Shown in pieces: positions 24,779 through 44,278 of a stretch of 64,000 bases of DNA. A program made the position numbers and the translations under genes. The stretch is from a virus. Location: positions 32,914-96,913 of IMG/VR virus record IMGVR_UViG_3300033149_002604, one strand, 5' to 3'. A model generated the notes under the pieces. The model did no database searches. It worked only from the letters and a program-made list of their open reading frames with translations, and was not told where the DNA came from. How positions within the stretch are numbered: position 1 is the first letter of the stretch; each line of letters starts with the position of its first letter.

Positions 24779-25468
24779 TTACTGTGAGATCATTTTATTA
24801 TTTACAACCATATAGATTCTTCCATTTATGACTTCACAATTTATAACCATATTTAAATCTAAAAAGAATTTAATGAAAAATCCCAGACTTTTTACTGAAA
24901 TGTGTTCTAATTGATCTACACAATTAGGAAACTCAGGAGTATAAATCAAAAGATGACCACTCTTTTTCATCTTTGAAAGTGCCCACTTAGTAATTTTCTT
25001 ATACAGCTCATCAGTTACATGTTCAGCAAAGTCTATCTGCAATATAGTATCAAAATCGTCATCTACTTCTGGAAACCAACTAAAATCACAACATATGGAT
25101 TCAATCCTATTATCTAAGTAGGGCTTAAATGCTTCAATTGAATACTTATTACCATCAATACATACAATCTTCGATAAATCGGGTTTTCTTCTGAGAAGAA
25201 ACATTGCTCCTAATCCTGGTCCACCAACATCTAATACTTTACCTTTAATTGTTCCACCAAACATTTTCACCAGATTGTTCCATTTGTTTATGTGGACATT
25301 GGAAAGTCTTGGAAATCTTTCATCATATTCTTCTTTTAAAAGCTTTATGTATTCATGGGCTGTATACTTTCCGAATCTAGTTTCAATACAATACTTTTCA
25401 AAACACCTTTTAGGATCTCCATATTTCCTTAAGTGCCACTCTTCTGAAGTAGCTTCATAAACAATCAT
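24779..25468 (-). CDS. Class I SAM-dependent methyltransferase
   Basis: 229 residues from ATG 25468, which overlaps the stop of the upstream gene as ATGA and has GGAG six bases upstream. Motif I is GKVLDVGGPGLGAMFLL (about residues 69-85), followed by KIVCIDGNKY (motif II acid), DTILQIDFAEHV and LLIYTPEFP (motif IV/VI region). No membrane segments. Coupled to the four-domain fusion protein, so its acceptor is likely the same glycan or peptide. Substrate unknown. Confidence 0.72.
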   Translation of the reverse strand: MIVYEATSEEWHLRKYGDPKRCFEKYCIETRFGKYTAHEYIKLLKEEYDERFPRLSNVHINKWNNLVKMFGGTIKGKVLDVGGPGLGAMFLLRRKPDLSKIVCIDGNKYSIEAFKPYLDNRIESICCDFSWFPEVDDDFDTILQIDFAEHVTDELYKKITKWALSKMKKSGHLLIYTPEFPNCVDQLEHISVKSLGFFIKFFLDLNMVINCEVINGRIYMVVNNKMISQ

Positions 25469-28422
25469 AGTTTCTCCAACCAATTTATGTTGTCTGCTGT
25501 TACATTCTTTATAGCAAAATCAACCCGTGGTAGATCACACCAGTTACATAGTCCATAAAATTCACATCTTAAATCATCTAAATTTATAGGTCTAAAGTCT
25601 TTGATATTGCAGATGGGTTTGATGTTGTAGTATAGTCTGTAATGACAATTGAAATAGTTTCCAGACGGATCAATTATTAAAGAAAATATTCCATGTGGAC
25701 ACATTACTGTTGTTCCTTGGCTTTGCCCACACATTTTCCTGTAGAAGGTATAATCATAGATTCCACACATTCTTCTAGCGGATTCTTGGTCCCAGTAACC
25801 CTCATTAGGATATAAGCAATCGGGACGGAAATCTTTAGCATATCCATTTTCTTCAGTCCAGAATCCTAAGAATGGGGGGGATTTTAGTTCTGGAAGAGAA
25901 TTTCTAACCTTTTCTATCCTCTCTTTCCATTTAGTTTCTATTTCAGGGATATAAACAAATGCGATTTGGTCAACATACAACCCACAATCTCTCATTTCAT
26001 TTATTCTAGAAACATATTCCTCTGGTTCCAGTGCATGTGGATGATATGAAGTATTGATTCTTAATGTAGAACCAAATCTAGGTTTAAGTTGTTTGAATTT
26101 CTTACTTTCCCAAAATTCCCCCTTACAATTCGTAGTAATTGTTATATAATAATCTTCAAGATTGTTGACTATTTCAACCAAATCTTTGTGTAATGTTGTT
26201 TCCCCACCTATTAGAGACAATCTTTGCCTTGGTTCGTGATATAAATTATTCCACCAATTTAATATTTCTTTACCACTTAATTCTTCACGTGGAACGTGTT
26301 TACCCCTACCATCTACGATACAAAACGGACAATTTCCATTACATCTAAATGTAATCATGTGTGCCCAATAACACATTGGGTAATAATAGTTGCTAGGTAA
26401 AACTTTTAGCTGTGTTGTTCTTTTATTAAAGTCTGTTACCAAACTTCTTAATCTGTTTATACGTTTTTCAATATCACATTCTGCAAGTTCAAAGTCAATA
26501 AACTTGAATTCCCCATCTTTAATCAATATATTATTTATGTTCAAATCAAATATTCCAACTGCTTCTAATATTTTATGGGCTTCATCAATTATCTTATAGT
26601 ACAGTTCTTTGTTTAAAGATCCTATCTCACCAAGATTTCTCCAATCAAAATATTCAAATAAAATAAATTGATCTTGTATAGCTATTGGTTTTACCACATG
26701 CTTAGAAGCCTTATAAGCTGCAACAGTTCTATCAAATTGATCATCTGCAAAGTTGACTAGACTATCATTGGGATAAAATTTTTCACTTAACCAATCGTTA
26801 TACAGTTGTTCTTTTACAAAATATTTGTTTCCATTGCTGTCTGATACTGTGAAATACCTTACATCTTCTTTGGATTTATGCCTATTACGAAATTGATCTA
26901 CTATTTGATATTCTTTATCTCCAAACCTTATCTTCTTATTCTTCATGTGTTCAGGAAGTTCATCAGAAAACCAAAACAGCCATCTTTCCACACCATGAAT
27001 TTTTTCAGAACAAATCGTTTCAACGTGTGTTGAAATACCTAATTTCTCTGAAACCCATTTTGGAAATTCGGTTCTATGGTCTGTAAACTTTGGAATAAGA
27101 TTTATCCAAGGGGTCCATTCACTACCCTCTTCATTAGATTGTCCCATATCAAATATAACATTCTTGGAAATCCTACCTACTTCTGAAAGAATCTGATCAG
27201 CCACTTCAGCAGAATACTGTTCATAGATATGATGATGGACACTCATGTAAAAAGTGAATTCAAATTCCTTATCCTTGAATTCTTTCAACCTATCTAATAA
27301 ATCTTTTTCTAGCAGTTCGAATGTACATTTATTATTAGCAGCCTGTGCCTTCTTTGCAGATTCGATCATCTTAGGATCTGTATCTAGCCCTAAAACATCA
27401 AATCCCATTTGGGCAGCTAGGATGGAAAAATACCCGTTGTTGCAACCAATATCTAAAATCTTACCTGACTTTTTCTTAACAAGTATAGGTTCTATGTATC
27501 GCCATCTTTTAGCTGAATCCCGCTTTCCACCACACTGTCCTGTAACAGACGAATTATATGATGTATCTACGTTATTGAAATAATTAAGAATGTCCTGCTT
27601 GTACTTATTCCAGTTCAAAATTTCAGTTAAATCATTAGCATTTCCGGCTACCTGTACATTACCGAATAGTGGTATGGCTTGGTGAACTGGGGTGCTTTTA
27701 AACATAGCCAAGAGATTTTTCCTAAATGCACCTGCAATGTGCATCACCACACTGTCTATTGCACATATAAAATCTACATAAGCAATAAGTGCTTTACTGA
27801 ATCGCATGTCATCTTCTGGTAATTCGATGGATCGGGAACATGATTTACGACCAAATTCAAATATCGTAAACTGGTTGAACATTTCGTTCATCATCTTTTC
27901 TATTATGTCTGATTCAAATTCTTTGGGTGGATTTCCAGCTTTATTGTGTAGAATCAGCCAAGGTTTGTCATACTGGCTAAGATATTCCATTGCTTTTTTA
28001 GCATAGTCTTCACGGAAGGTAAGTTCGGTGATGAGTTCTTCTATCCTATCAAATTTAATTCCCAATTCATCTGCTGCCCTGAATATCTTGTGCATCTTGA
28101 ATCCAGCTTGTCGTAGTAAGGGAAGGGTTATGATGTTGTCATACTTGCCTAAATATTCATACTTGACTGATCTGTCAAGTTCCCTAATATTGTCAAGATA
28201 CCCATCATAAGACTTTACATTTTCCCAAGGATCAGGAAGGATTGGCAAGAATTCATCTACAAAGGTAAATTCTAGTAGTTCTTCAACCTTTGAACCAAAC
28301 CTTTGTAGACTTGCTAGGGAAATTTCAGTATCAGAACAGATTTGCTTGTACTTTCTTAAAGCTGGGGTTAATAAGATATGGTCGCCTAAGCCGTGGGGGT
28401 AAACTATTAGAATCTTTGACAT
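25465..28422 (-). CDS. Four-domain fusion: GT9-like glycosyltransferase, methyltransferase, LPS-kinase-like, radical SAM
   Basis: 985 residues from ATG 28422 (GAGG upstream, stop of the previous gene overlapping as TAATG). Residues 2-283: KILIVYPHGLGDHILLTPAL and CAIDSVVMHIAGAF, the ends of a GT9 heptosyltransferase-like fold. Residues about 315-490: methyltransferase with GKILDIGCNNGYF. Residues about 495-665: kinase-like domain of the LPS-core or RIO type with Lys537, a catalytic-loop Asp626/Asn631 (FDLNINNIL) and Asp643 in FIDFE. Residues about 680-985: radical SAM with CNGNCPFC (Cys694, 698, 701), GGE at 739-741 and a Cys-rich C-terminus (Cys926, 938, 953, 959, 962) like a SPASM or Twitch auxiliary cluster site. 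I know of no standard enzyme with this order. It may build or modify a phosphorylated, methylated sugar structure, or a peptide, during infection. Confidence 0.85.
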   Translation of the reverse strand: MSKILIVYPHGLGDHILLTPALRKYKQICSDTEISLASLQRFGSKVEELLEFTFVDEFLPILPDPWENVKSYDGYLDNIRELDRSVKYEYLGKYDNIITLPLLRQAGFKMHKIFRAADELGIKFDRIEELITELTFREDYAKKAMEYLSQYDKPWLILHNKAGNPPKEFESDIIEKMMNEMFNQFTIFEFGRKSCSRSIELPEDDMRFSKALIAYVDFICAIDSVVMHIAGAFRKNLLAMFKSTPVHQAIPLFGNVQVAGNANDLTEILNWNKYKQDILNYFNNVDTSYNSSVTGQCGGKRDSAKRWRYIEPILVKKKSGKILDIGCNNGYFSILAAQMGFDVLGLDTDPKMIESAKKAQAANNKCTFELLEKDLLDRLKEFKDKEFEFTFYMSVHHHIYEQYSAEVADQILSEVGRISKNVIFDMGQSNEEGSEWTPWINLIPKFTDHRTEFPKWVSEKLGISTHVETICSEKIHGVERWLFWFSDELPEHMKNKKIRFGDKEYQIVDQFRNRHKSKEDVRYFTVSDSNGNKYFVKEQLYNDWLSEKFYPNDSLVNFADDQFDRTVAAYKASKHVVKPIAIQDQFILFEYFDWRNLGEIGSLNKELYYKIIDEAHKILEAVGIFDLNINNILIKDGEFKFIDFELAECDIEKRINRLRSLVTDFNKRTTQLKVLPSNYYYPMCYWAHMITFRCNGNCPFCIVDGRGKHVPREELSGKEILNWWNNLYHEPRQRLSLIGGETTLHKDLVEIVNNLEDYYITITTNCKGEFWESKKFKQLKPRFGSTLRINTSYHPHALEPEEYVSRINEMRDCGLYVDQIAFVYIPEIETKWKERIEKVRNSLPELKSPPFLGFWTEENGYAKDFRPDCLYPNEGYWDQESARRMCGIYDYTFYRKMCGQSQGTTVMCPHGIFSLIIDPSGNYFNCHYRLYYNIKPICNIKDFRPINLDDLRCEFYGLCNWCDLPRVDFAIKNVTADNINWLEKL

Positions 28423-29339
28423 TAATCGCCTCGCATTATGGTTGTTATTATCTTTTCCGTAACATCCTTCCAAGTATGCAACTTTCTAACCTTTTCTAGT
28501 CCTTCCCTTGCAATTGCTTCCCTTTCATCGTCATGTTTCAGGTAATATTCTACCAGTTCCATGAATTCACTTTCATTCTTGAACCAAACCAAATTCTTCT
28601 TATTGTCAAAGAACAAACTTAAATCATCACAGAATTCTGAAAGTAAAAATCCACCACAACCTAATGTAGTTACCACACGATCGCTGAATATGTTGGAATG
28701 AACTAGATTTAGAACTATTTTATACTTGTTGATAGTCTTTCTTAAGTCAGCTAACACTATTGGTGGATTAGGTGAAATTTCTTCAGGCCAACCTTGACCG
28801 TAAACGTCTATCAGGTCTAAGTGTTTAGAAACAAAATTCAATCTTTTAGCTGTAGCACTTCCAAAGAACAGAATTTTATCAATCTTGTTGGTATTATCTT
28901 CTGGATAGAATATATCTGGATCATAGCCTTCTATAATTAGGTAGGACTTCCCAGTATATTTATGTCTATCAAAGAATTCAACTACTTCACTTGAAGTTGC
29001 GCTTGCAAAATTTACCCTAGTCACGTATTGTTCTGCCCGAATAGCTTCAGCAACCCTAATATTGTCCATGAACCAGTACCAAGTTGTACATTGTTCAGTC
29101 ACTTTTTGAACAATTGCTGGGTTGACGCCATTTATTTTGCTGAATAATACCAATTCAGGTTTGTATCTGTTGACGGCCCACAATAGATAATCATAGAATA
29201 CTTCTTTTCCTTCCTTGGAAATGATTGTTCTGTAATTTATAGGAATTACACCCCAACCATTCTGCTTAAAACCTTTTGCCATCCAGACATTGGTGCTTTC
29301 TGGTTTGTCTAGTACACCAACGATCATTACTTTTGGCAT
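28422..29339 (-). CDS. CgeB-like glycosyltransferase
   Basis: 305 residues. The C-terminal region YKIVLNLVHSNIFSDRVVTTLGCGGFLLSEFCDDLSLFF is the signature of the CgeB / Glyco_trans_1_2 family (GT-B enzymes). The N-terminal half has KVMIVGVLDKPESTNVWMAKGFK and WYWFMDN. Overlaps the upstream glycosyltransferase gene by 13 bases and the downstream fusion gene by one codon, so the three are made together. Donor sugar unknown. Confidence 0.8.
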   Translation of the reverse strand: MPKVMIVGVLDKPESTNVWMAKGFKQNGWGVIPINYRTIISKEGKEVFYDYLLWAVNRYKPELVLFSKINGVNPAIVQKVTEQCTTWYWFMDNIRVAEAIRAEQYVTRVNFASATSSEVVEFFDRHKYTGKSYLIIEGYDPDIFYPEDNTNKIDKILFFGSATAKRLNFVSKHLDLIDVYGQGWPEEISPNPPIVLADLRKTINKYKIVLNLVHSNIFSDRVVTTLGCGGFLLSEFCDDLSLFFDNKKNLVWFKNESEFMELVEYYLKHDDEREAIAREGLEKVRKLHTWKDVTEKIITTIMRGD

Positions 29340-30340
29340 GGGACTTCTCCAATTATTTGGTTTAGGTTTTCCGTATGCTTATTGACTACATCTTCATATT
29401 GCTGCCTTTTCAAATTTTCTACTTCATTCAGTCTATCAAGCATTGTCGCTATGTCAGATAGGATGGTTTCAGCATCAATAGCCCGATAATCTGAAACATA
29501 TCTAAAACTTACTGGTACATCAAACCTGTTTTCCAACACAGCATGTCTATGTTTTTCATGTCCAATAATATAGCTGGGACAACAGCTTTGTAAACTTACA
29601 TGTGTAAGACCAGATTGACTACTAACTGAACATACTGCTGAATTTAGATAGGTTACAATTTGATCCATTTTATCTTCACCATCGTAATCAATCAGGTTGA
29701 TTACATTGTCTGCCTTGTACCCTGATAGGAATGAACCAGATGGTGTACCACAAAGTACCACAATGAAGTATTTTCTTAACCCTTCTACAACTTCAGCCCA
29801 TACAAATTCGGGTACATTTCTAAAAGCAGCTCTACTCCTCCCTCGCGGCATTACACAAATAATATCCCGTTCTAGTTTAACTTTAGGTCTTACAAGTTTC
29901 CTGAAAATCTGTGGTGCATAATTTATAAAAGCATTACATCCACGTGGGGGAAATATTTCTATAGTCTTTGTCCAGTCATAAAAGGTTCTGCAATATTCTA
30001 TGATTTTAGAATATACATGTGGGGGTGTTAGGCTTCCTGGTGGTGATCCAAGTAGTGGTGCTTCATAACAATCCCGTTCCAATTCCATACCATAAAACCA
30101 GTCGGGAAGTTCTATCGTATAGTCTACGAAGTCTTCTACGAATATGTGGTAATCCAATTCTGTGAACAGTATGAATTTTCTGTCCTTATATTCATTGTGC
30201 TTAAGAAACCTCAGATGTGCTTGAAAGCGGCTTAAAAACCACCCCAATTCACCATAAAAGAAAGATGCAACACAAGGTTCATTTATGTACAAATCCTTAT
30301 TTATTATCTGGCTGTGCTGGATTGTCTGTGTTCCTTCCAA
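29327..30340 (-). CDS. GT9-like glycosyltransferase-type protein
   Basis: 337 residues. Starts at TTG 30340, with AGGAG eight bases upstream. Residues around 165-270 (ICVMPRGRSRA, FIVVLCGTPSGS, CSVSSQSGLTHVSLQSCCPSYIIG) have the order of the C-terminal half of GT9 enzymes, in which a Ser/Asp-Ser-Gly-x-x-H turn binds the sugar nucleotide. The N-terminal half is not recognisable. Overlaps the small membrane protein gene by 44 bases. First sugar gene of the cassette in transcription order. Confidence 0.65.
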   Translation of the reverse strand: MEGTQTIQHSQIINKDLYINEPCVASFFYGELGWFLSRFQAHLRFLKHNEYKDRKFILFTELDYHIFVEDFVDYTIELPDWFYGMELERDCYEAPLLGSPPGSLTPPHVYSKIIEYCRTFYDWTKTIEIFPPRGCNAFINYAPQIFRKLVRPKVKLERDIICVMPRGRSRAAFRNVPEFVWAEVVEGLRKYFIVVLCGTPSGSFLSGYKADNVINLIDYDGEDKMDQIVTYLNSAVCSVSSQSGLTHVSLQSCCPSYIIGHEKHRHAVLENRFDVPVSFRYVSDYRAIDAETILSDIATMLDRLNEVENLKRQQYEDVVNKHTENLNQIIGEVPCQK

Positions 30341-30701
30341 ACCGCAACTCCTTTAAAATATTCTTTATATCCCTTCGCATTTCGTACTGGTTGGCTTTAA
30401 GTTCCTTTATTGCTTCATACAGCAGGGTATAGCTAGATTCAAGTTTTGCTACACGTTCATTCTGTGCTGCTACTGCCTGCTTGTCTGCAAATCGCATTAC
30501 TGCCGATTGATTGTCACTCCACAGCTTCACCCCAGTAGAAATGGCTGGAATAGCTATAGCACCAATGATAATATACAACCACTTTTTAGGTACTTTATTT
30601 GCTACACATCTTACCAACCCACCAGTACCATCCTTACCATACAATGCTTCTTCTATTTTACGTAATGTGGACTGGCATTCGGGATCTGGACAATTGGTCA
30701 C
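30297..30701 (-). CDS. Membrane protein with one helix and coiled coil
   Basis: 134 residues. A 20-residue hydrophobic helix (WLYIIIGAIAIPAISTGVKL, residues 41-60) precedes a coiled coil (ERVAKLESSYTLLYEAIKELKANQYEMRRDIKNIL). The N-terminus has CPDPEC. The XhlA-type holin partners have a coiled coil and one helix, but in the opposite order, so a lysis role is only possible. No endolysin is next to it. Confidence 0.6.
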   Translation of the reverse strand: MTNCPDPECQSTLRKIEEALYGKDGTGGLVRCVANKVPKKWLYIIIGAIAIPAISTGVKLWSDNQSAVMRFADKQAVAAQNERVAKLESSYTLLYEAIKELKANQYEMRRDIKNILKELRFGRNTDNPAQPDNK

Positions 30702-31544: not shown

Positions 31545-33188
31545 CTACTGCGTTGATATGCCTCCTGAGATGGAGACGCCGTGGAAATTACCCCATCTAT
31601 ATTCGTAAGCACCGATGTCCCAGGCTGAGCCTTGAGGTCTAGAGATATTATCAAGATCATAATTGTAAGTAGTACCTAAATCTATCCCAGAATCTACACA
31701 ATCGGAACTGCTTCTTAAATAGTAATTGTTATTTGCTGGATCTATAAAACTGGCTTGTTTGTTATCTCCCGCAGAATCATGACTATTTACACCTTCATTC
31801 TGCTCAGCTATAAAATCGTCGAATAACTTCATTCCACCAGAATAATAATAATTTATATTGGTACAACCAATATCTGCTATGCACCATCTGACTACACGTT
31901 GGTCGCCATTCCCTTGGTCGAAAAGGTTGTAATCTCCTGTATAAATCAAATCAGAAGAATCATAAACACATAAATCGCCGTCGTTTGTGTCTCCATCAAT
32001 ATTATTCTGATAAAGGACGCAATTTTTCATTGTAACAAGAGTATCTCTATTGCTATATGAGGGTGCACTAAGATATACACCAAATGAGTTGTTAGCAAAT
32101 GTACAATTATATATATAGACTGTGGGGCCATTATATACATGGCACCCAATGTTATTCTCATAAGCCAAACAGGAAACAAAATAAAACCTTGAATTGCCAG
32201 TAGAATCCGCTGCATTAGCAGCAAAACCATCATCATTGTTATATGAGCGGCATCGTTTAAAAATGATGTTATCGTCTAATACACTATTCGACACAGTCCC
32301 ATTGTCAAAACCATCTCCTTCATTATCGTAAGCTAAACAATCGCTTATAGTAATATCATGAGAATCAGTTATCCAGAAGCCATGTTTTAGGTTCCCACCA
32401 CCGCCACCACCTCTTGGTGTATCTCCATTGTTATGTGAAATACAATTAGATATAATCCCATTACTACAACCATATGTAGAACCCCCAATGTAGAATCCAG
32501 TCGTCAAATCATTATCTCCACCATCGGCTTCACACCATTCAATTGTAAAACTGTCTTGTCGTTGTATAACATAGCTCTGTTTTCCGCTATTTATACACTT
32601 AACATGGCTCATCTCTAGACCACTACATTTTGAGGCTTCAGATGTTCCTAGTGCTCTTATTGAATAATAATCGGCTCCAGAAACAATAAAACCGTCGTAT
32701 GAACTACTTATACCGGCGATTCCACTTATTGTTAGATAAGGAATAGGTGTGATGGTTCCATCTGGTAAAATTCCAATATTTATTAACGCTTGGTATTCAT
32801 CAGAATATGATGCGTTACTATCTGTAAAAATTACAGATCCAGTTCCCCAATTTATGTCACGTTTTATGGAAATTCTGTTACTTGGTGTAGCAGAATTAGA
32901 ATAGTAATCTGTGTTTATATAAATAACACCAATATGTGTAGTGCCAGACTTTATAAAAATCAAATCTCCAGGTTGAATAGTAACTGAAGGGCAGTTGTAA
33001 CCGGTATTATCCAATTTTCGTGTGCCAGGAATATGTTGCCAAGGCGTAGAAGTTGACAATCCATCATTAGAGTCAGAACCACTACTAGGGTCAACATAGT
33101 ATGTACTGGCCCAAGAACAAAATAAGGAAACAAATAGAAAGATCAATAAAAATATACTAACAATAAAAATTCTTTTATTAATCAACAT
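31545..33188 (-). CDS. Secreted right-handed beta-helix protein
   Basis: 547 residues. N-terminal signal peptide: basic start, a hydrophobic run IFIVSIFLLIFLFVSLF, cleavage likely after SWA. The body has the repeated short turns of parallel beta-helix proteins (SGLEMSHVKCINSG, SNGIISNCISHNNG, DITISDCLAYDNEGDG, VYIYNCTFANNSFG, VTMKNCVLYQNN), about eight coils, and ends SRPQGSAWDIGAYEY, a common C-terminal cap. Such folds bind or cleave polysaccharide. A signal peptide on a phage beta-helix is unusual. Overlaps the upstream gene by 11 bases; fourth-coupled member of a block with export signals. Confidence 0.8.
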   Translation of the reverse strand: MLINKRIFIVSIFLLIFLFVSLFCSWASTYYVDPSSGSDSNDGLSTSTPWQHIPGTRKLDNTGYNCPSVTIQPGDLIFIKSGTTHIGVIYINTDYYSNSATPSNRISIKRDINWGTGSVIFTDSNASYSDEYQALINIGILPDGTITPIPYLTISGIAGISSSYDGFIVSGADYYSIRALGTSEASKCSGLEMSHVKCINSGKQSYVIQRQDSFTIEWCEADGGDNDLTTGFYIGGSTYGCSNGIISNCISHNNGDTPRGGGGGGNLKHGFWITDSHDITISDCLAYDNEGDGFDNGTVSNSVLDDNIIFKRCRSYNNDDGFAANAADSTGNSRFYFVSCLAYENNIGCHVYNGPTVYIYNCTFANNSFGVYLSAPSYSNRDTLVTMKNCVLYQNNIDGDTNDGDLCVYDSSDLIYTGDYNLFDQGNGDQRVVRWCIADIGCTNINYYYSGGMKLFDDFIAEQNEGVNSHDSAGDNKQASFIDPANNNYYLRSSSDCVDSGIDLGTTYNYDLDNISRPQGSAWDIGAYEYRWGNFHGVSISGGISTQ

Positions 33189-33747
33189 ATACCCTCACTG
33201 CCAAACCTTCAGCATATGATGTCAATGACGAATCATCCTCACAGTTATCAGTAGCATAATCTATAACAGTTGAATAATAACCATTAACGTCTTCCGAATA
33301 ATATTTTACATTCCCAGAAGAGTCGTCTGATATAAGTATATATAAAGTTATTCCATTTGAAACAGAGATCCCAGGAGATACCGTTATATCTGATACCCAA
33401 CCACTTGCTGGTGCAGCTATACCACGTTGGTACCATAAACAATTCCCAGATGAGTCTAAAATCTCAATTTTAAGATTACGACCAGTTCCATATGAATTTA
33501 TCTTGCAAGAAACCTTCGTTACCGTTCCACCTTGGTCAAAAGTTATTTTATCTCCGCTGGCGGTAGCTGCACCACTTATATATAAATATCCAGCATAAGT
33601 AGGCTCTGTAGTTGCACCATCATTATAATAATACTGATCTGGTCCTCCACTACTAGACGAACTCCCACTAATAATCACCGTCCCCCACCCCCACACTAGG
33701 GCAGGGATGAGAAGCAAGACTAAAGCTAATGCAATCCACTTTTTCAT
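33178..33747 (-). CDS. Exported protein with jelly-roll-like domain
   Basis: 189 residues. Signal peptide MKKWIALALVLLLIPALVWG, then a Ser/Gly linker and a beta-rich domain (KITFDQGGTVTKVSCKINSYG, NLKIEILDSSGNCLWYQRG, ISNGITLYILISDDSSG) like carbohydrate-binding jelly rolls. Start overlaps the upstream stop as TAATG. Whether it is released, anchored or part of the virion is unknown. Confidence 0.65.
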   Translation of the reverse strand: MKKWIALALVLLLIPALVWGWGTVIISGSSSSSGGPDQYYYNDGATTEPTYAGYLYISGAATASGDKITFDQGGTVTKVSCKINSYGTGRNLKIEILDSSGNCLWYQRGIAAPASGWVSDITVSPGISVSNGITLYILISDDSSGNVKYYSEDVNGYYSTVIDYATDNCEDDSSLTSYAEGLAVRVYVD

Positions 33748-35372
33748 TAGTCAGCACCTCCATCAGACCAGGTTCCCGATCTCCCAAGCGTTATCCAAGT
33801 GCTGTCATCTATTGCTAGCAAGCTAATGAAATCCCCTGCATTGCCTTCGCTGTCAATAGCGTTGCCAGCAGTAAGGGATGTTCCATCTAAAATGATAGTG
33901 TCTGAATCATCATATGTATCTACCGTTACCGTAGCTGCATACTTGGAATAGAAAGTAATGCTCAAGCCAGCAGCCGCAGCAGGAAGGGTGTAATCAATAG
34001 CATCATTGTCATTGTTGATTCTCATACCACCCTTGCAGTCTGAAGCTGAAAGGGTCACTGAGGCATCTGTGTCTAGTATTACAGGAACATTTCCAGAGAG
34101 ATTACCTGTGAGAGCTAGGCTTGTACCTGTAGCTGCCCCTATGTTAGGTGTGGTTAATGTAGGACTGGTTGCTAAAACTACACTCCCACTTCCAGTGGTT
34201 CCGTTAGACAGGTCAGAGGCGGATATCTGAGAGCCGTTGATCTTATACTTTTTCCCAGAGGCTAAATTAAAATCACTAGCTGCCTCGATATTACCATCAG
34301 CATCAAGTTGCATGATCGTAGTAAGGGTTCCATTAACAAGAACCTGAAAGAACAAATCAACATCCTCAGTCCCATCTCCTGTGTCTGTAGCGTTCCCATA
34401 TATCTTCCAGTCAATACTTTCAGCACTTGTGTCTGAATCGTCTCCTGTGATGTCTGGTGTAGCTGAAGCCCCTGATTGGATACCCCCATCAGCATATAGG
34501 GTTCCATCAACTTCCAAAACTCCCTCTACTCCAAGTTGTGGAGAATGACCAAAATTGTAACTTCCATCACCAATATAAATGTTATGATTGTTACTATCTA
34601 GATTCCCACCTAGTTGAGGGGAGGTGTCTTCAACTACATTCTTCAATAATGAAGAACCATCTGAGAGGTTACTTGAGCTTATTTGACTTCCGTTTATCTG
34701 ATAAATAGCCCCACTTGGTAAATTCAGATTACCAGTGTCATCAATTGTGACGTTTGAGTTCTGGATCGTCTTCCCACCAGTTCCATCAAACCTTGCAATG
34801 GCGTTATCAGTTGAGGAAGCTGGCCCCGTTACATCACCGCTACCTGATGGTGTCGCCCAAGCACCGTCACCACGCAAAAACTCTGAAGTGGAACCACTAA
34901 GCTTAGGCAGGAGACCATGAGCCGAAGTGGATGCATTTGCTGTGGTGACATCAGAAAAGTTTAGTTCTCCTTCCTCAATGCTCGTACCAAGACTTACCGA
35001 AAGTGTAGTATCTGAAAACGAAAATCCTGTTCCAAAAGTGAGCCAAGTTATCGCTCCAGCCGAATCATCCCAGAACAATCCCCTATCTGCATTGGGATCG
35101 GATAATGATGCACCAGTCCCACCATCTGCAAGGGCCACGTCTGTTGATCCTGGGGCATAGTAGTCAGTACCTGCTGTAGCAGCACTAAAATCCCCAGCAC
35201 CGTCACATTTAACGATTCCACTGACTCCATCTAAGTCATCTATCTCTTGTAAGAAGGTATCAACCTGACTACCCGTGTAACCTGTAGTAGTATTATAGGC
35301 ATAAATAAACGATCCTACACAAATACAAAGCAAAGCTATGATAAGACCTATAATATATTTTTTTGTCTTCAT
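33747..35372 (-). CDS. Exported fibre-like repeat protein
   Basis: 541 residues. A Sec signal peptide (hydrophobic run about residues 6-24, cleavage near FIYA) is followed by typical phage-fibre sequence: LADGGTGASLSDPNADRGLF, DVTGPASSTDNAIARFDGTG, YQINGSQISSSNLSDGS and a related second copy KYKINGSQISASDLSNGT, SPTLTTPNIGAATGTSLAL. Fibres are normally folded in the cytoplasm, so an export signal is striking. Overlaps next gene as TAATG. May be displayed on the cell surface of the infected host or use the membrane during assembly; inference. Confidence 0.75.
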   Translation of the reverse strand: MKTKKYIIGLIIALLCICVGSFIYAYNTTTGYTGSQVDTFLQEIDDLDGVSGIVKCDGAGDFSAATAGTDYYAPGSTDVALADGGTGASLSDPNADRGLFWDDSAGAITWLTFGTGFSFSDTTLSVSLGTSIEEGELNFSDVTTANASTSAHGLLPKLSGSTSEFLRGDGAWATPSGSGDVTGPASSTDNAIARFDGTGGKTIQNSNVTIDDTGNLNLPSGAIYQINGSQISSSNLSDGSSLLKNVVEDTSPQLGGNLDSNNHNIYIGDGSYNFGHSPQLGVEGVLEVDGTLYADGGIQSGASATPDITGDDSDTSAESIDWKIYGNATDTGDGTEDVDLFFQVLVNGTLTTIMQLDADGNIEAASDFNLASGKKYKINGSQISASDLSNGTTGSGSVVLATSPTLTTPNIGAATGTSLALTGNLSGNVPVILDTDASVTLSASDCKGGMRINNDNDAIDYTLPAAAAGLSITFYSKYAATVTVDTYDDSDTIILDGTSLTAGNAIDSEGNAGDFISLLAIDDSTWITLGRSGTWSDGGAD

Positions 35373-35390
35373 TTTGTACCCCTCATTGTT

Positions 35391-35642
35391 TTATGACTTC
35401 ACATTAAAAACCTCAAAGCTTCCTTCCCCGTCTGAGACGTTGAATGGTTCAAACCCGCCACCACCATCAGAGACGTTAAATGCTTCAAAAGGGACCACAG
35501 CAGAACTCTGCCCCCATCTACCAACATTCCACTCTTGGTTTCCCCATCTATCACTATTCCATCTTGATCTATTCCAACCTGCATCTACAACAGAACATAT
35601 TAGAAGTATTCCACAAATCAATAAAAAGATATTTCTTACCAT
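35391..35642 (-). CDS. Small exported repeat protein (83 aa)
   Basis: Signal peptide MVRNIFLLICGILLICSVVDA, then a Trp/Arg/Asn-rich stretch (RWNSDRWGNQEWNVGRWG) and three copies of FNVSDG(G/E)G or similar. Low complexity. Start overlaps the previous stop as TAATG. Function unknown. Confidence 0.6.
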   Translation of the reverse strand: MVRNIFLLICGILLICSVVDAGWNRSRWNSDRWGNQEWNVGRWGQSSAVVPFEAFNVSDGGGGFEPFNVSDGEGSFEVFNVKS

Positions 35643-36100
35643 TATTGTCTCCCCAAATATCCAGTCAATGTTGCATCATCTGCTCCGCCTGTCTCGGTAG
35701 CCCTAATTTTAAAGTATTTTCCAAATATTCCGTTGAAATCAATCGAAAAGCAATCCTTGCCGTTGCTTCCATTTCCCGAAGTCTTGGTAAATCCAGTAGC
35801 TATGTCACTAACACCTGTAGGTTCAAGAAAACTAGAATCATCAGTATCAGTATACGAAATTAGCAATTCAAATTTTAAAGTCGGATTACCTGTAGCACTA
35901 ACTTCTGGACAAAACACAAAATATCCATCAGGACGTGTGCCGTCTAGTCTTATGATGGAAGAATCTACAGAATCACCAGCAGAAACGGTAACGTTATCAA
36001 ATATCTTAGTAAATTCAATGAATTGATCTGAAGAATATACGCTACCAGCAAGCAGAAACACAAACAACAGACACAAAGCAAGTATCTTAAGTGCTTTCAT
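35642..36100 (-). CDS. Exported beta-rich protein
   Basis: 152 residues from ATG 36100 (GGGGG nine bases upstream). Signal peptide KALKILALCLLFVFLLAGSVYS, then a beta sandwich-like body (FDNVTVSAGDSVDSSIIRLDG, NPTLKFELLISYTDTDDSSFL, KYFKIRATETGGADDATLTGYLG). First gene of the five-gene export block. Resembles phage surface or decoration domains in style, but no family named. Confidence 0.65.
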   Translation of the reverse strand: MKALKILALCLLFVFLLAGSVYSSDQFIEFTKIFDNVTVSAGDSVDSSIIRLDGTRPDGYFVFCPEVSATGNPTLKFELLISYTDTDDSSFLEPTGVSDIATGFTKTSGNGSNGKDCFSIDFNGIFGKYFKIRATETGGADDATLTGYLGRQ

Positions 36101-36162: not shown

Positions 36163-36525
36163 TTACTTAACCTTAGTAGCTGCATTATCAGCAGTAAATA
36201 GCCACATGCTACCAGCTGAAGAAAGGGTCATAGAACCTTTCACAGAAGCATCTACTGCGGTAGCTTCAGCAACTATGGTAGCAGCAGTATTAGCTGTGCT
36301 GATAAAAATATACTGATGGTCACCTATCTTAATTCTACCGCTAGAATGAAGTAGTGGGGCAGTTACTGAAGTGTTGCCAGTAAGTGTAGTAGCTGTTACA
36401 GCATTAGCTGTTATTGTTGGTGTGTGTAAGGAAGTATTACCAGTAAATGTAGTAGCTACAACCGTGTTTGCGGTTATTGTTTTCCCTTTTGCAATAATAT
36501 TACTTCTAAAATGTGTCGTTCCCAT
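36163..36525 (-). CDS. Head decoration / fibre-like protein with TGNTS repeats
   Basis: 120 residues. Two tandem copies of about 20 residues with the pattern ITAN(T/A)V(V/T)ATT(F/L)TGNTS, then GRIKIGDHQYIFISTANTAATIVAEA. Strong ribosome site GGAGGTGA. Between the capsid gene and the export block, so a capsid-bound fibre or decoration protein is likely. Confidence 0.65.
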   Translation of the reverse strand: MGTTHFRSNIIAKGKTITANTVVATTFTGNTSLHTPTITANAVTATTLTGNTSVTAPLLHSSGRIKIGDHQYIFISTANTAATIVAEATAVDASVKGSMTLSSAGSMWLFTADNAATKVK

Positions 36526-36699: not shown

Positions 36700-38476
36700 T
36701 TAGCTAGAAGCAATTGCATTAGCATACCAAAATCGCCAATTGGTTACTACTCCACCATAGCGACAATTGATAGTAATGAAATAATCAAGCGACACCTCAT
36801 CGATGAACGTATCAATGATAGGATCTTGGCGGTTGCTTGCAATTAGTCCTTCCTTGGCTTTTCCTAAGAACCACCCATCAGTGTCACTCAGATAACTCCA
36901 CTCTATCGGATTCACCAACCCACGGAGCACATTGACATCATTGTCTGCACTTCCAGGGATCAGTGTAGAATTCAGAAGCACCTGAGCAGTAAACTTCAGT
37001 GCGGGTGGAATCAAAAGGGTGTCTGGAAGTATTTCTACAACATTTCCCCTTTCATCCCTATTGTTGGTAGAAGTCATAGTAAGATATACTGACCTCAAAT
37101 TAGATTCCGTCAAAGAATTGGAAGCACCATAATTAGAATAGGTGTTCCCAACCTTATCGGGGTGTGCAGTAGAGAAGAAAGGTTTATTGTCATAGATCAA
37201 GTTCCCTGTAGGATCATCAATAACATTAGCAATGGTGTTATTAAAAACATCATTGCCAGCAGTCATTGCCCCGTAGTTGAAGAACTTGGCATAGAACTTT
37301 TCCTTGGTTCTAAGATATGCCTTACCCCAAGAACCAACAGCCTGTTGGATAAGGTTAGACTTCTGGCTGTCTTCGATAGATTCTTTGGAAAATCTAGCAA
37401 TCCTTCCAAAAGTCCTGTTCTTGCAGATTACAGTGTAACCTTCCATTGGGGCATCTGGCTGCAAGTCTTCACTTTCAGGTTTTTCCACCAAGTCACCCAT
37501 TCCGATAGCTGTGGTGAATTTCTCATCACATTTGTTACTGTCTATTGACAGGACTGGTCATTTCTGCCAGTCTCCACACATTGCTGTGTGGGTCGGACTA
37601 TATCACTACTAGATTTATCATCTAGCAGGTTGGCGTACGGACCTAGTTTGTATCTCATACAAGGAACTATATATGGTTTGATAATTTCTACAAATCTGTC
37701 ATTGTGTTTATTTCGAAGTCTTAATCTATATTTATAATTACCAAGTTTCGTTTTTCCTGCCTTATTGATATTCCAATCGAGATCAAACTTCAATTTAAGG
37801 CTTTTTTTGAGAAGAAGTTGATTAGCATAATCATAAGCTTCGGTACTTAGATAAAATGTAACATCTTTGCCATTAGGATTAAAACCATGTGTGCCGTTAT
37901 CCATGAATAAAATTGCTAATGAAAGTGGATTTAGTTTCTTTACGATATATTCATCTAAGACCTTTCTACCATTATAATACATTCTCTTTCTAAGTTTGGT
38001 AAGCATTGGATGTTGTCTTGTTCCTAGATGGTATCCATAAAATATCTTACCATTTAATTCTCTCTTCGTTTTGTGTATTGAAGATGATGTTATTTTATCA
38101 AGGAACTTTTTCTTCCAGAGCATATATTCGTATTGAGCTTCACAGTGGCTCATCTGAAAAAAAGCTTCACTTCTACCTTTTCTACACGACAAACACCCAT
38201 CTCCCATTACCATTGCTATTATCACACTTCTAAGTTCTTCTCTATTTAGGTCCATAGTCTCTACACCCTCCTTAAAGGATTGGCTCGGTATTGTCCTCAG
38301 GGGATTTCCACCGAATTTAGCCAACTACGCGCATAAGTTTACGCTGCATCGGAATCAACTACATCAAATATATTTTCATACACGGGAGCTTTTTGCTCAT
38401 AGGCTTCCCAGAAGAAACCATAGGCCGTCTTCTTCATATTTTCAGTAAAATCATCACGTCTTACTCCGCCTGCCAT
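36700..38476 (-). CDS. Major capsid protein, gene split by a group I intron (exons 38476-38341 and 37526-36700)
   Basis: Exon 1 encodes MAGGVRRDDFTENMKKTAYG to DVVDSDAA plus the first base of a Tyr codon; a stop follows at once. Exon 2 restarts with AT GAG AAA, giving AAYEKFTTAIGMGDLVEKPE. Joined length 320 residues with no frame problem. YENIFDVV, YEKFTTAIG and CKNRTFGRIARFSKESIEDSQ, with FFSTAHPDKVGNTY and LPDTLLIPPALKFTAQ, match the gpT-type HK97-fold capsid proteins. Neighbours are decoration, scaffold and portal genes. Without splicing no full capsid subunit could be made, so the intron must be active. Confidence 0.88.
37527..38340 (-). ncRNA. Group I intron in the capsid gene (814 nt) with an endonuclease ORF
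   Basis: Splice sites are supported by base pairing: exon end GCGU pairs with intron GCGC (splice-site U opposite G, P1), and exon 2 start AUGAG pairs with CUUAU that lies directly before it (P10). The last intron base is G. P/Q-type sequence GGTGGAAATCCCC and GAGGACAATACCGAGCC lies near the 5' end, and an S-type GTGATATAGTCC near the 3' end can pair through TAGT with ACTA of an upstream R-type segment (P7). The endonuclease frame covers most of the middle and overlaps the 3' core. Confidence 0.85.
37542..38255 (-). CDS. Intron-encoded LAGLIDADG homing endonuclease
   Basis: 237 residues from ATG 38255, preceded by AAGGAGGG. Two LAGLIDADG-type helices: VIIAMVMGDGCLS near the start and LAILFMDNGTHG in the middle, with basic beta segments between (YGYHLGTRQHPMLTKLRKRM). 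The last 25 residues are encoded by the intron's own 3' core. It should cut intronless copies of the capsid gene and so spread the intron. A longer frame to 38324 would begin inside the 5' core and is not needed. Confidence 0.87.
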   Translation of the reverse strand: MDLNREELRSVIIAMVMGDGCLSCRKGRSEAFFQMSHCEAQYEYMLWKKKFLDKITSSSIHKTKRELNGKIFYGYHLGTRQHPMLTKLRKRMYYNGRKVLDEYIVKKLNPLSLAILFMDNGTHGFNPNGKDVTFYLSTEAYDYANQLLLKKSLKLKFDLDWNINKAGKTKLGNYKYRLRLRNKHNDRFVEIIKPYIVPCMRYKLGPYANLLDDKSSSDIVRPTQQCVETGRNDQSCQ

Positions 38477-39015: not shown

Positions 39016-39936
39016 TTATTCTTCAGGTTTAATTTTTCCTAGTTTAATATCCCGTAATCTGGCTATTTCAGCCCAATCTTCAGGTTTCATACGATGCTGT
39101 TTAGCCTCTTCTATGATTTTGGGATTTGTTGGGGAATAGTCCCCAGTCAGTTTGCCGGTCTTGTCTTGGGTTTGGGTTGACCTGATACTTTCTGTATTAG
39201 CATCAGACCTTACCAAGTTGTCATTTTCTGGATCATCTAGAAACTGACTAACCCGTTCTTCGACCGACAGTTCATCTTTTATCTTTCCAGATGCATCATA
39301 CACAGGGTAGAAAAACTTATCCAAGTTTTCATCATATTCAAATCCGTCTTTAAGCAGCTTAACAATCTGCTTCGGATTATATGCCTTCTTCGATGCGATT
39401 TCTAAGATTTCCCGTTCAAGTCGATATTCCCTAAAACGCTGAATCTTAGAATCCCGTTCTTTCAATTCCTTTTCTCTGTCTTCAAGAAGCTTCTTGAACT
39501 CAGCCATCTGCTGTTCAAATTGTTTCTGGAGGGATTCTTTTTCCTTTTCAAAACGAATCTTCATCCGTTCTTCTTCACTCTTCTTGGCAAGTTCCTCCTC
39601 TTCCCTCTTCTTTTCCAACTCCGTCTTAAACTCTTTCAGTTGATTATATTCTTCAAGAATTTTTTCAAATTCATCCTTCGGGGGAAGTTCTTTCATCCTT
39701 TCTTCAAATTCTTTAAGACGTTCCTGAAGCTTCCGCTTCTCAGACTTAATACGATCCCGTTGGGAAATTACCTTCTTCAACTCACTCTCTAAATACTCAG
39801 GATCTTTATCCTTTTTATCCTTCGTCTTTTCCTGTTCCTTTTCTTCAATCTTAGCCTTCAGTTCATCTTCATTGATACTATCTTCATCATCTATTTCAAT
39901 ACCTAAAGCTTTTGCCTTTTCAATCAAATCTTTCAT
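39016..39936 (-). CDS. Scaffolding protein
   Basis: 306 residues with a long highly charged coiled coil (about residues 25-170, mainly Glu and Lys), followed by REILEIASKKAYNPKQIVKLLKDG and a mixed C-terminus. Such a protein between portal and capsid genes is the scaffold around which the procapsid forms; the family pattern (DUF-type scaffolds with AYNPxQIVKLL) is familiar. No protease is fused to it; the ClpP-like gene further upstream is a possible processing enzyme. Confidence 0.85.
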   Translation of the reverse strand: MKDLIEKAKALGIEIDDEDSINEDELKAKIEEKEQEKTKDKKDKDPEYLESELKKVISQRDRIKSEKRKLQERLKEFEERMKELPPKDEFEKILEEYNQLKEFKTELEKKREEEELAKKSEEERMKIRFEKEKESLQKQFEQQMAEFKKLLEDREKELKERDSKIQRFREYRLEREILEIASKKAYNPKQIVKLLKDGFEYDENLDKFFYPVYDASGKIKDELSVEERVSQFLDDPENDNLVRSDANTESIRSTQTQDKTGKLTGDYSPTNPKIIEEAKQHRMKPEDWAEIARLRDIKLGKIKPEE

Positions 39937-40147: not shown

Positions 40148-41689
40148 CTATTCCAACCCAGTCCGATCTACCTTCTTCTTGTCTAGGTTTTTGGTGTCTA
40201 GTTCATCCTTAGACTGGAAAGTATCTTTATCATTTACATTTGGATTCCCAGAACCATCATCCCCGACTTTATCTGGAACATATGCAGGCTTAACTTCCCC
40301 TGTTCCACTTTCAATTTCCTTTTCCACTTGCTGCACAACAGTCTGTGGTGCAAGTGGGATAGCACGTCTGGCAAGATTTTTCATTAACGTCTTGTTTAAC
40401 GTTTCTGAAAAATTCCTTTCCATGATCTTGAACGTAGATTCTATTTCATCAGACAGGGCAGAAACATCAAAGTTGTCTGCGTATCTAACTTCTTCAAACT
40501 TTGAAGGATCTTTTCCAAGCTGCATATAAGCTAACTTACTGATTTCATTTTCAAATCTTTGATAGGCAGCAGCTTTATTTGCCAGTGCTGCATTCACACC
40601 AACAAACCCCATCTGTGCAGCACGACCAGACCTTCCCATGTAAATGTCACTAGATGTTCCTAACAATCCTGCTAGTCGATAGATTTCCTTGATATGATCT
40701 ACTACAAGATTCCAGATTGTACGTATATTTTCCGTGTTTGGGGAAATAAATTGTGGTGCGTGGGTAGAACTTGCAGGAAAAGTCCATATTGAAGAAGTAC
40801 CTATTCTGTAAAGTGGGTCATCACTTGTTTCATCTTCTTCCGCCAGTGAACCATCATCTGGAACTACTAGCTGGGAAAAAGTCTGCCTTTCTATTTGTTC
40901 ATCTATACAGGAACACCAGTTAAGGATAATTCTGTTGATGTAGACGATATCCTTCAGCATTGATTCCCCAATTAAGTTTCCATCAATATCTTCGTGGTAA
41001 AGGGTTACAAGCGGAACTTTCCCAAGTTTGTTTTGACCACTGGCAGGGGAACCGTCTTCAAATACAACTTGGTTTCCTTTATCATCTTCTACATGCCATT
41101 CTTTTCTGGTAATCAATGTATAGTGGACTTCTTCTGTACGTTCTACCGTAGGATCTATGTCCCTGTAATAAGTAGTTTCAATAACCACCCACTGTAATTC
41201 CCCAAATCTATCAATAGACCAATCTTTTAGTTGTGTTGGGTATACAATGGTACAATAAGGTTGAATCTTTCTTTCATCAGCACGGGTAAGTCTTTTCTTG
41301 TTGGTTGGTGTAATGTCAACAAGTGCATGAATTGTTCCTAACACTGAAGAAAGAAATCCACACCTTCTAACGAAAGTGGTTATGTCTGTACCACGTAGAT
41401 CTGTATTCTTACGGAATTGTTCTAGAACAGGATCAGATGGCCTTTCAATCCTTTCCTTAAATATATAAGTGTTGTACAATTTAGGAATAGATTCACAGAA
41501 ATTCAGGAAGTAAGCCCTGTCAATCCTTTCATCGTAGTCATCTGTATCTTCAAGTCGGTGGGAAAAGATATTTGATTCATTAGCAAAATTCTTCCCCCCC
41601 TTAACTGCATTCAGATACAGATTCCACAGATCTACATAATCTTCATACAGTGGATGTTCCCTTTTTGATAACCTGATTGCTTTTGGCAT
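40148..41689 (-). CDS. Portal protein
   Basis: 513 residues. Follows the terminase and membrane-protein genes and precedes the scaffold. Motifs AYFLNFCESIPKLYNTYIFK, QPYCTIVYPTQLKDW, GKVPLVTLYHED, and helical HIKEIYRLAGLLGTSS then AALANKAAAYQRFENEISKLAY show the stem, wing and long helix of the portal family. The acidic C-terminus is disordered. It forms the dodecameric DNA gate in the capsid vertex. Confidence 0.9.
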   Translation of the reverse strand: MPKAIRLSKREHPLYEDYVDLWNLYLNAVKGGKNFANESNIFSHRLEDTDDYDERIDRAYFLNFCESIPKLYNTYIFKERIERPSDPVLEQFRKNTDLRGTDITTFVRRCGFLSSVLGTIHALVDITPTNKKRLTRADERKIQPYCTIVYPTQLKDWSIDRFGELQWVVIETTYYRDIDPTVERTEEVHYTLITRKEWHVEDDKGNQVVFEDGSPASGQNKLGKVPLVTLYHEDIDGNLIGESMLKDIVYINRIILNWCSCIDEQIERQTFSQLVVPDDGSLAEEDETSDDPLYRIGTSSIWTFPASSTHAPQFISPNTENIRTIWNLVVDHIKEIYRLAGLLGTSSDIYMGRSGRAAQMGFVGVNAALANKAAAYQRFENEISKLAYMQLGKDPSKFEEVRYADNFDVSALSDEIESTFKIMERNFSETLNKTLMKNLARRAIPLAPQTVVQQVEKEIESGTGEVKPAYVPDKVGDDGSGNPNVNDKDTFQSKDELDTKNLDKKKVDRTGLE

Positions 41690-42394: not shown

Positions 42395-44278
42395 TTATCG
42401 AATGATTCTACTTCCCCTTGCTGGTCGTGTAAGTAGTTTAAATCTTTTTCCTTTTACAAGGGAAAAACACATTTCAAGGGAATCTAGAACATCATCCCTA
42501 TCGTTCTTGTTACCTGTATAATATAGTATTTGATCCACAGCATCACGGTACATAGCCTGTCTTTCATATTTATACCCATCAAAAACTATCGTTCCATCAC
42601 GCATAAAAGGAAAAAGACTTTCAAACCGCATTAGCTTGTCTTTCTTACTATCTATTTCCTTTATCGGAAGGAACATTCCCAGTTTCTTGGTTTCTTTACG
42701 AAGTAGTTCTGCTAGAACATACTGAAAAGCAGTGGTTTCTACACCAAACAATCGCCATTCATGTTTTTCAAACAGTTTGATTACGTCCTGGATCTGCTTG
42801 TCAACAGAACGGCGTTTCATATTAATATCAATGACATAGGCTGTTGAAGTTTCTTTATTCCATGCCAATGTCGTAATTACTGAATAATCTCCACTACTTG
42901 TCTTCTTTCCAAGCGATGGGTCTAAAGCACCATAACGAGGCAATCCAGTAAGTAAGTGTGTATTAGCCTTCAGGTCTATGAAGGCCATTTCTTCTTTCCT
43001 GATTTTGACCTTTGTAAGATCAATACTTTCGTTTTGCTTTTCCTGTAGAAATGCTGATGGATCAGTAAGTTTGGCTACCATATTGTCATAATATGGGTCA
43101 CCTTCGGGCCATAGAACCTTAGTTCCCCGTAGCATTTCTTTTTCATGTGCAAGATAGAATTGCCTAGCGTGTTCTATTCTGTCTTTGTCTGTAGAATCTG
43201 TATATATTCTAGCCCATTCATCCCAAAGTGGGGAATCTGAAAACTTTTCAACAGCCTTGAACCGAATGCTTTTGAAATCAGGGTATATATTTGGGTCCAT
43301 CAATTTATTCAATAAAGCTTCATGTCCAATAACTGTTCCTATTATAAATATATCAAGATTGTTGGCTTCCCCACCAACAAATAATACATCCTTATTGAAC
43401 CATTCCCGAACAGCTTCCCTTTGGGCCTCAGACCTAACCATCTCTGTGGCCTCTAAGTCGTCTCCGATGAAAAGCCCAGGTCGTTCAGTTCCAAATCGTC
43501 TACCACGAATCTGGCTTCCGGTTCCAAGGGCTAGAACTTTTACATCATTACGTGTGATTATTTCATCAGCACGCCAAATAGCACCCTTCCCACAGGCATA
43601 CGGGAAATCCCGTTGCAATCGCATATTTCCTTCAAGTTCCTTCTTTATATCTGATAGAAAGTCAATTGACTGATTGACTGTCTTTGATACAAGGATAATA
43701 AACTTCTTCTTGTTGTATACAATACACCAAATTGGAAATATGCAGTTGATTACTGTACTTTTTCCACTGGAACGTGGCGCTGCGATAGCCCACCTAGCCC
43801 TTCGGCGTGGGCTATCGACAGCTTTTGGTAAAGTCTTATATAAGAATTTATGAAATTTGCTATTAGGTTTCTTTAAGTAATGTGGAAAATAAAATTTTGC
43901 AAATGCGTCTAGTCTTGATTCACATGCTTGGATTATATGTCTTATTTCAATGTCTTGTAATTTCTTGTCTTCTTCGTATAAATCATAAAGTAATTTGTCT
44001 TTCTGTTCTGGTGAATTTGCCTTCATTCTTGATACTCTAAGCTTATTCTTCTTCCAAAATTCCTTCTCTGCTTCTTTGTAATCCCGAAATTTGTGTCTTC
44101 CTTTTCTATCAGAATATTTTTCCCGTGTTTCTAATCTTTCTTCAGCTAAATCTAAAAAATCTTTTGCAAAATCTGGTATATCTCCATATTTCCTTATTAA
44201 TCTTTCCCTTTCTAACTTAATTTCTTCTCTACTTCTAAATAATTTGTTTTTAATTTCTGCATATTTTTCTTTTTTCAT
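42395..44278 (-). CDS. Terminase large subunit
   Basis: 627 residues. ATPase domain: Walker A-type APRSSGKST (residues 167-175) and Walker B LFIGDDLE (269-276), with GRRFGTERP between. The nuclease domain has GALDPSLGKKTSSGDYSVI (about residue 455 on), FGVETTAFQYVLAELL and, near the end, DRDDVLDSLEM, the usual three acidic sites. It packages DNA into procapsids. N-terminal 120 residues are longer than usual and helical and charged. Overlaps the small subunit by four bases. Confidence 0.95.
   Translation of the reverse strand: MKKEKYAEIKNKLFRSREEIKLERERLIRKYGDIPDFAKDFLDLAEERLETREKYSDRKGRHKFRDYKEAEKEFWKKNKLRVSRMKANSPEQKDKLLYDLYEEDKKLQDIEIRHIIQACESRLDAFAKFYFPHYLKKPNSKFHKFLYKTLPKAVDSPRRRARWAIAAPRSSGKSTVINCIFPIWCIVYNKKKFIILVSKTVNQSIDFLSDIKKELEGNMRLQRDFPYACGKGAIWRADEIITRNDVKVLALGTGSQIRGRRFGTERPGLFIGDDLEATEMVRSEAQREAVREWFNKDVLFVGGEANNLDIFIIGTVIGHEALLNKLMDPNIYPDFKSIRFKAVEKFSDSPLWDEWARIYTDSTDKDRIEHARQFYLAHEKEMLRGTKVLWPEGDPYYDNMVAKLTDPSAFLQEKQNESIDLTKVKIRKEEMAFIDLKANTHLLTGLPRYGALDPSLGKKTSSGDYSVITTLAWNKETSTAYVIDINMKRRSVDKQIQDVIKLFEKHEWRLFGVETTAFQYVLAELLRKETKKLGMFLPIKEIDSKKDKLMRFESLFPFMRDGTIVFDGYKYERQAMYRDAVDQILYYTGNKNDRDDVLDSLEMCFSLVKGKRFKLLTRPARGSRIIR

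What the first reader, a model, noticed from the sequence alone, without database searches (positions are those of the whole stretch)
31545..36100. Five consecutive coupled genes all with Sec signal peptides
Signal sequences are visible at 36100, 35642, 35372, 33747 and 33188, and each start overlaps or nearly overlaps the preceding stop. Products include a beta-helix, a fibre-like repeat protein and a jelly-roll-like protein. Phage structural proteins normally fold in the cytoplasm. The block may form a surface appendage, an exclusion layer or a secreted polysaccharide-binding complex on the infected cell.
Basis: partly seen in the sequence, partly recalled or inferred. Interest (0 to 1): 0.88.

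Follow-up and report, generated by a model that had tools for sequence, protein, structure and literature searches.

The report
Phage cassette of exported fibre proteins
This phage carries five joined genes for fibre- and sugar-binding-like proteins that all begin with an export signal, and similar sets recur in unrelated phages, suggesting that some phages send modified copies of their tail fibres out of the infected cell's cytoplasm.

Summary
Five adjacent, nearly overlapping minus-strand genes (P1-P5, 36100-31545) each start with a classical Sec signal peptide (SP). A rule-based scan flags few other genes in this 96.9 kb virus, and none in such a run.

Similar SP-gene runs occur elsewhere: 3 genes beside the capsid of the closest relative (L003), 8 in a 95 kb phage (L025) that keeps the order P3>P4>P5, and 2-3 in four phages without a detectable terminase relationship. 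SPs cluster: beta-helix genes with an SP have SP neighbours in 9/18 cases, against 4/90 for those without.

The products resemble virion fibres plus an SP. In a Deltaproteobacteria prophage (L073) an SP replaces the initiator Met of an otherwise ordinary, syntenic tail fibre; cleavage should restore the native N-terminus.

Best reading: a modular late cassette exporting fibre-derived, probably glycan-binding proteins to the envelope, perhaps for receptor masking. Function, cleavage and final location are untested, and no domain is shared with this phage's own tail fibres. Rivals: an exported depolymerase set, or virion fibres that mature in the periplasm.

The parts
35642..36100 (-). P1, 152 aa, SP + small beta-rich protein; distant homologue (about 30%) of an SP gene next to the capsid in L003
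35391..35642 (-). P2, 83 aa, SP + Trp-rich segment (GWNRSRWNSDRWGNQEWNVGRWGQ) and three copies of an F-NVSDG-like repeat
   Evidence: no family match
33747..35372 (-). P3, 541 aa, SP + tail-fibre-like protein; residues 240-412 are 66% identical to an SP fibre of L025; other stretches match SP-less phage fibres
33178..33747 (-). P4, 189 aa, SP + beta-sandwich/jelly-roll-like protein; first 32 aa (SP and VWGWGTVIISG) 75% identical to an L025 gene, body different
31545..33188 (-). P5, 547 aa, SP + right-handed beta helix; C-terminal 88 aa, ending SGGISTQ, 55% identical to an SP helix of L025; 16 Cys after the SP
36163..36525 (-). Context: SP-less 120 aa late gene between capsid and P1, conserved in capsid relatives (76% to L003:13860-14171)
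30297..30701 (-). Context: 134 aa single-TM protein with a weak Rz-like spanin match (possible lysis gene)
   Evidence: phrog_9841, E 0.005

Best explanation
P1-P5 are a modular, horizontally exchanged cassette among the late genes that makes Sec-exported proteins built from virion-fibre-type parts: a fibre (P3), beta-sandwich-like proteins (P1, P4), a beta helix (P5) and a small Trp-rich partner (P2). They are translated as a coupled set, carried through the host Sec machinery, cut by signal peptidase and folded in the periplasm. There, or at the cell surface and on debris after lysis, they bind or modify envelope or extracellular glycans. The most likely benefit is masking or altering receptors so that siblings and progeny do not re-adsorb to the infected cell or its fragments, a job like that of T5 Llp but done with fibre-type proteins. 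Shown by sequence: signal peptides, coupling, recurrence and order, mosaic exchange, relation to SP-less fibres. Inferred: late expression (from strand and position), cleavage, localisation, glycan binding, benefit.
For: Five SP genes in a row. Independent SP runs in L003, L025, L032, L034, L038, L044 and L073. SP helices have SP neighbours in 9/18 cases versus 4/90 for SP-less helices. Order P3>P4>P5 conserved in L025, with 68-83% DNA identity confined to cassette segments. In syntenic phages an SP-less fibre occupies the slot of L073's SP fibre, and its first mature residue aligns with residue 2 of the SP-less ones. SP is rare on comparable fibres: 0/16 and 2/72. No Tyr-integrase. Precedents: T5 Llp blocks the receptor FhuA (PMC9586334); P. 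gingivalis phages with several SP genes (PMC10367356).
Against: No sequence similarity between P1-P5 and this virus's own SP-less tail fibres, so a shared receptor specificity is not indicated. How the proteins would cross an outer membrane is unexplained. Binding and activity are untested; P4 and P5 models are of low confidence. In L073 the SP fibre lies in the tail-fibre slot with a well-conserved N-terminal domain, which would equally fit a virion role.
Confidence: 0.42

Rival explanations
1. Exported polysaccharide-processing set: the beta helices are depolymerases or lyases and the fibre and jelly-roll proteins are binding partners; they loosen capsule or biofilm so that progeny spread, with no role in exclusion.
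For: Several beta helices per cassette (three in L025). Cassettes often lie beside lysis-type genes by inspection. Pantoea WceF is an exported, tailspike-like biofilm hydrolase (PMC7949094).
Against: No enzyme family beyond the generic beta-helix model was matched and no solved enzyme by sequence. Fold of P5 not modelled well.
Confidence: 0.22
2. Virion fibres that travel through the periplasm: the SP-bearing fibres mature outside the cytoplasm and dock on particles at or after lysis.
For: In L073 the SP fibre holds the tail-fibre slot; cleavage should restore the native N-terminus and that domain is no less conserved than in SP-less relatives (80% versus 75%). L006 and L003 carry the same fibre body with and without an SP.
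Against: No known tailed phage does this as far as I know. This virus has SP-less tail fibres in its tail module. The L073 contig is cut just upstream and the prophage may be decayed.
Confidence: 0.14
3. Accessory genes that benefit the host or a long-lived infected state (lysogenic-conversion type).
For: The slot is accessory among capsid relatives. The L073 example is in a bacterial genome.
Against: No Tyr-integrase in this virus or the seven other phage records tested (serine integrase not tested). The genes sit among late structural genes and no separate coding-strand promoter stands out.
Confidence: 0.1
4. The hydrophobic N-termini are not working Sec signals: they are membrane anchors, or are removed by a prohead-type protease.
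For: Only a rule-based predictor was used. PMC10367356 explains SP calls on capsid proteins by prohead-protease cleavage.
Against: All five have the full n/h/c layout. The junction with the native fibre start in L073 fits signal-peptidase cleavage.
Confidence: 0.08

Closest known systems
T5 Llp and other superinfection-exclusion lipoproteins
   Same: Phage proteins exported to the envelope that act on receptors (PMC9586334).
   Different: Llp is a single small lipoprotein expressed early; this is a coupled set of large fibre, jelly-roll and helix proteins with type I-like SPs among late genes.
SP-bearing genes of Porphyromonas gingivalis Nixviridae phages
   Same: Several phage genes of unknown function with Sec signal peptides (PMC10367356).
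   Different: Not described there as fibre-derived or as a coupled recurring cassette in the passages read.
Phage tail fibres and tailspikes
   Same: P3 and P5 match SP-less phage fibres and helices over parts; the L073 fibre is syntenic with SP-less tail fibres.
   Different: They carry an N-terminal export signal and, in this virus, lie outside the tail module.
Pantoea stewartii WceF
   Same: Exported protein with a tailspike-like beta-helix fold (PMC7949094).
   Different: Bacterial, Tat-exported, with activity shown; no sequence relation to P5 was tested.

Membership tests
Sec-exported proteins (type I signal peptide) | Positive n-region, hydrophobic core, small residues at -3/-1 | tested here: met
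   All five by rule-based scan; SignalP not available
Sec-exported proteins (type I signal peptide) | Cleavage and translocation in the host | not testable with these tools
   Needs fractionation or reporter fusions
Phage tail fibre / tailspike | Sequence relation to virion fibres | tested here: met
   P3 and P5 over parts; not for P1, P2, P4
Phage tail fibre / tailspike | Present in virions | not testable with these tools
   No proteomics for this virus
Superinfection-exclusion protein | Blocks receptor or adsorption | not testable with these tools
   Needs a cultivated phage
Superinfection-exclusion protein | Shared binding domain with the phage's own receptor-binding protein (expected only for a simple decoy) | tested here: not met
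   No similarity within G000
Secreted polysaccharide lyase or depolymerase | Match to a named enzyme family or solved enzyme | tested here: not met
   Only the generic Beta_helix model; no PDB sequence match
Diversity-generating retroelement target | Reverse transcriptase in the genome | tested here: not met
   No PF00078 match in G000, L025 and others
Lysogenic-conversion moron | Temperate phage | tested here: inconclusive
   No PF00589 match; serine integrase not tested

The most novel reading that the evidence does not exclude
In some tailed phages, tail fibres carry cleavable signal peptides, mature in the periplasm and are added to virions at or after lysis, so that assembly is partly extracytoplasmic; the P1-P5 cassette would be an exchangeable set of such fibres.
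Probability: 0.12. Interest if true: 0.95.

Novelty: new variant of a known kind. Interest (0 to 1): 0.66.

Why it matters
If confirmed, some phages have repeatedly turned tail-fibre genes into exported proteins and keep them as exchangeable cassettes. That would add a class of envelope-acting phage proteins beyond lysis factors and small exclusion lipoproteins, and gives natural pairs (same fibre with and without an export signal) for testing how phages control re-adsorption, surface glycans or, in the boldest case, late addition of fibres to virions.

Tried and rejected
No DNA-level relative among annotated phages. Protein searches of annotated phages with P3, P5, the L006, L044 and L034 fibres and the L038 helix gave short matches or none; the Cellulophaga phage helix found this way is a virion protein by MS/MS annotation and has no SP. 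No Pfam or PHROG family for P1-P4; no solved-structure sequence match for P1, P3, P4, P5. Models of P4 and P5 were of low confidence; the P5 model was therefore not fold-searched. The capsid alignment found no cellular relative; the P3 alignment found generic fibre motifs, of which only L073 proved useful. Diversity-generating retroelement: no reverse transcriptase. Simple decoy sharing the phage's own receptor-binding domain: no sequence support. The NlpC/P60 match in P5 is below its cut-off and was set aside. Prophage regions with 35-37% identical terminases in L073's phylum had single SP genes but no fibre cassette. Literature searches found no description of SP-bearing fibre cassettes; the library is partial.

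Full report
OBSERVATION. The window is bases 32914-96913 of a 96.9 kb virus record. It is a tailed, siphovirus-like phage: terminase 42395-44278, portal 40148-41689, scaffold-like 39016-39936, capsid 36700-37500, tape measure 9204-13301, J-like central fibre 3106-7401 and tail fibre 91-1692. The five genes lie just downstream of the capsid on the same strand. A rule-based signal-peptide scorer finds SPs in all five. Elsewhere in the virus it flags mainly two ClpP-fold proteins and a few small or membrane proteins. In all, 10 of 150 called genes score, plus P2, and 4 of 138 non-gene ORFs score, one of them P2; a run of five has a shuffled-label probability of about 1e-4.

RECURRENCE. Among 21 relatives found by capsid, the nearest (L003, 80% capsid identity) has three SP genes in a row right after the capsid: 148, 130 and 667 aa. 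The first is a distant P1 homologue and the third has a marginal G8-domain match. Other relatives have none, one or scattered SP genes, so the slot is accessory. A search with P3 reached L025, a 95 kb phage whose terminase is only 38% identical. It has eight consecutive SP genes, among them relatives of P3 (66% over 173 aa), P4 (75% over the first 32 aa) and P5 (55% over the last 88 aa), in the same order. At DNA level three segments, in the middle of P3, at the start of P4 and at the end of P5, are 68-83% identical, while none of the other genes in the 16.5 kb L025 stretch matches this virus. Cassette parts therefore move between phages, and conserved ends flank variable bodies.

CLUSTERING. 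With the helix C-terminal domain, 29 loci were found, one of them the L025 phage again. L032, L034 (two sets), L038 and L044 have groups of SP genes: typically a fibre-like protein, a beta-sandwich-looking protein and a helix, near lipoprotein, small membrane or endolysin-like genes (these names are by inspection). None of the four has a detectable terminase relationship to this virus, though records may be incomplete. SP-bearing helices have SP neighbours in 9/18 cases, against 4/90 for SP-less helices. Some loci are related, so the Fisher value of 6e-6 is optimistic; on the other hand the L034 helix was counted as SP-less by the stricter start rule.

FIBRES PLUS A SIGNAL PEPTIDE. A Deltaproteobacteria MAG (L073) carries a prophage end with a ~400 aa gene that I take for a tail hub, then an SP fibre, an SP beta-sandwich-looking protein and a Dam-type methylase. 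L107 and L109 have the same arrangement with an SP-less fibre in that slot; the genes before it are 47-65% identical to L109, L107 and L113, and the methylase is 67-79% identical. Residue 22 of the SP fibre, the first after the predicted cleavage site, aligns with residue 2 of the SP-less fibres in six of seven matches (residue 24 with 3 in the other). The signal peptide thus replaces the initiator Met. Its N-terminal domain is no less conserved than in SP-less relatives (80% versus 75% mean identity). None of 16 viral-contig loci with this domain shows an SP, and of 72 fibres with another common motif two have one, both the same protein. P5's mature N-terminus aligns from residue 2 of an SP-less helix in L052 (34% over 90 aa), though bacterial secreted helices may start similarly. 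P3's mature start resembles SP-less L034:5415-5621 (by inspection). L044 has an SP-less relative of its SP fibre next to it, and part of L006's SP fibre is 69% identical over 217 aa to an SP-less L003 gene. Export signals appear to have been joined to fibre-type genes more than once.

MECHANISM. The surest statement is that these are probably exported, fibre-type proteins encoded as a coupled set among late genes. What they do is inference. Fibre, jelly-roll and helix architectures commonly act on glycans (general knowledge), and the block is followed by genes with methyltransferase, radical-SAM and weak glycosyltransferase matches. I favour masking or altering surface receptors on the infected cell and its debris, a job comparable to that of T5 Llp (PMC9586334). 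Against it: no similarity to the phage's own fibres and no explained route across an outer membrane. An exported depolymerase set is the main rival. A periplasmic route for real virion fibres is the boldest; it is not excluded, because in L073 the SP lies on the gene in the tail-fibre slot.

NOVELTY. Exported phage proteins are known, including several SP genes in P. gingivalis phages (PMC10367356). I found no description of coupled cassettes of SP-bearing fibre proteins in the papers searched. I rate it a new variant of a known kind.

LIMITS. No SignalP, no host assignment, low-confidence structure models, no expression or proteomic data. The records are metagenomic and several contigs are partial. 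Promoter and terminator scans were uninformative.

Noticed in passing
window 45436-46158 (-) and L024:10072-10854 (+); relatives L013:12441-13214, L008:8242-9003: Two ClpP-fold proteins of this virus, and one in each of two relatives, begin with a signal peptide or lipobox; the Ser and His positions expected for catalysis are invariant. PHROGs names the family head maturation protease, but an exported ClpP-like protease would be unusual.
   Followed up: partly
window 37500-38476 (-): The capsid gene is split: a 45 aa first part (38476-38339), then a LAGLIDADG-type ORF, then the rest, where relatives L006 and L011 have one 320 aa ORF. Sub-threshold group I intron matches lie at both ends on the right strand, and similar insertions occur in L010, L014 and L015.
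   Followed up: partly
window 25465-30340 (-): Three genes after the late block, with methyltransferase, radical-SAM and weak glycosyltransferase matches in one of them, are conserved in L003 and partly in other capsid relatives; they may modify glycans.
   Followed up: no
L005, L006, L011, L013, L014, L020: Relatives of this capsid family carry many repeated homing-endonuclease-like genes inserted between late genes (by inspection).
   Followed up: no
window 35391-35642 (P2); C-termini of P5, L025 helices and L003:11775-13778: Trp/Gly-rich segments recur: P2 repeats W-x(3)-RW, P4 begins WGWGTVIISG after the SP, and P5 and two L025 helices end in SGGISTQ. Possibly a shared docking element.
   Followed up: no
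L228:6970-7422 (-), genome G350: A prophage region with a 37% identical terminase has a single 150 aa SP protein that looks like a phage beta-sandwich protein.
   Followed up: no
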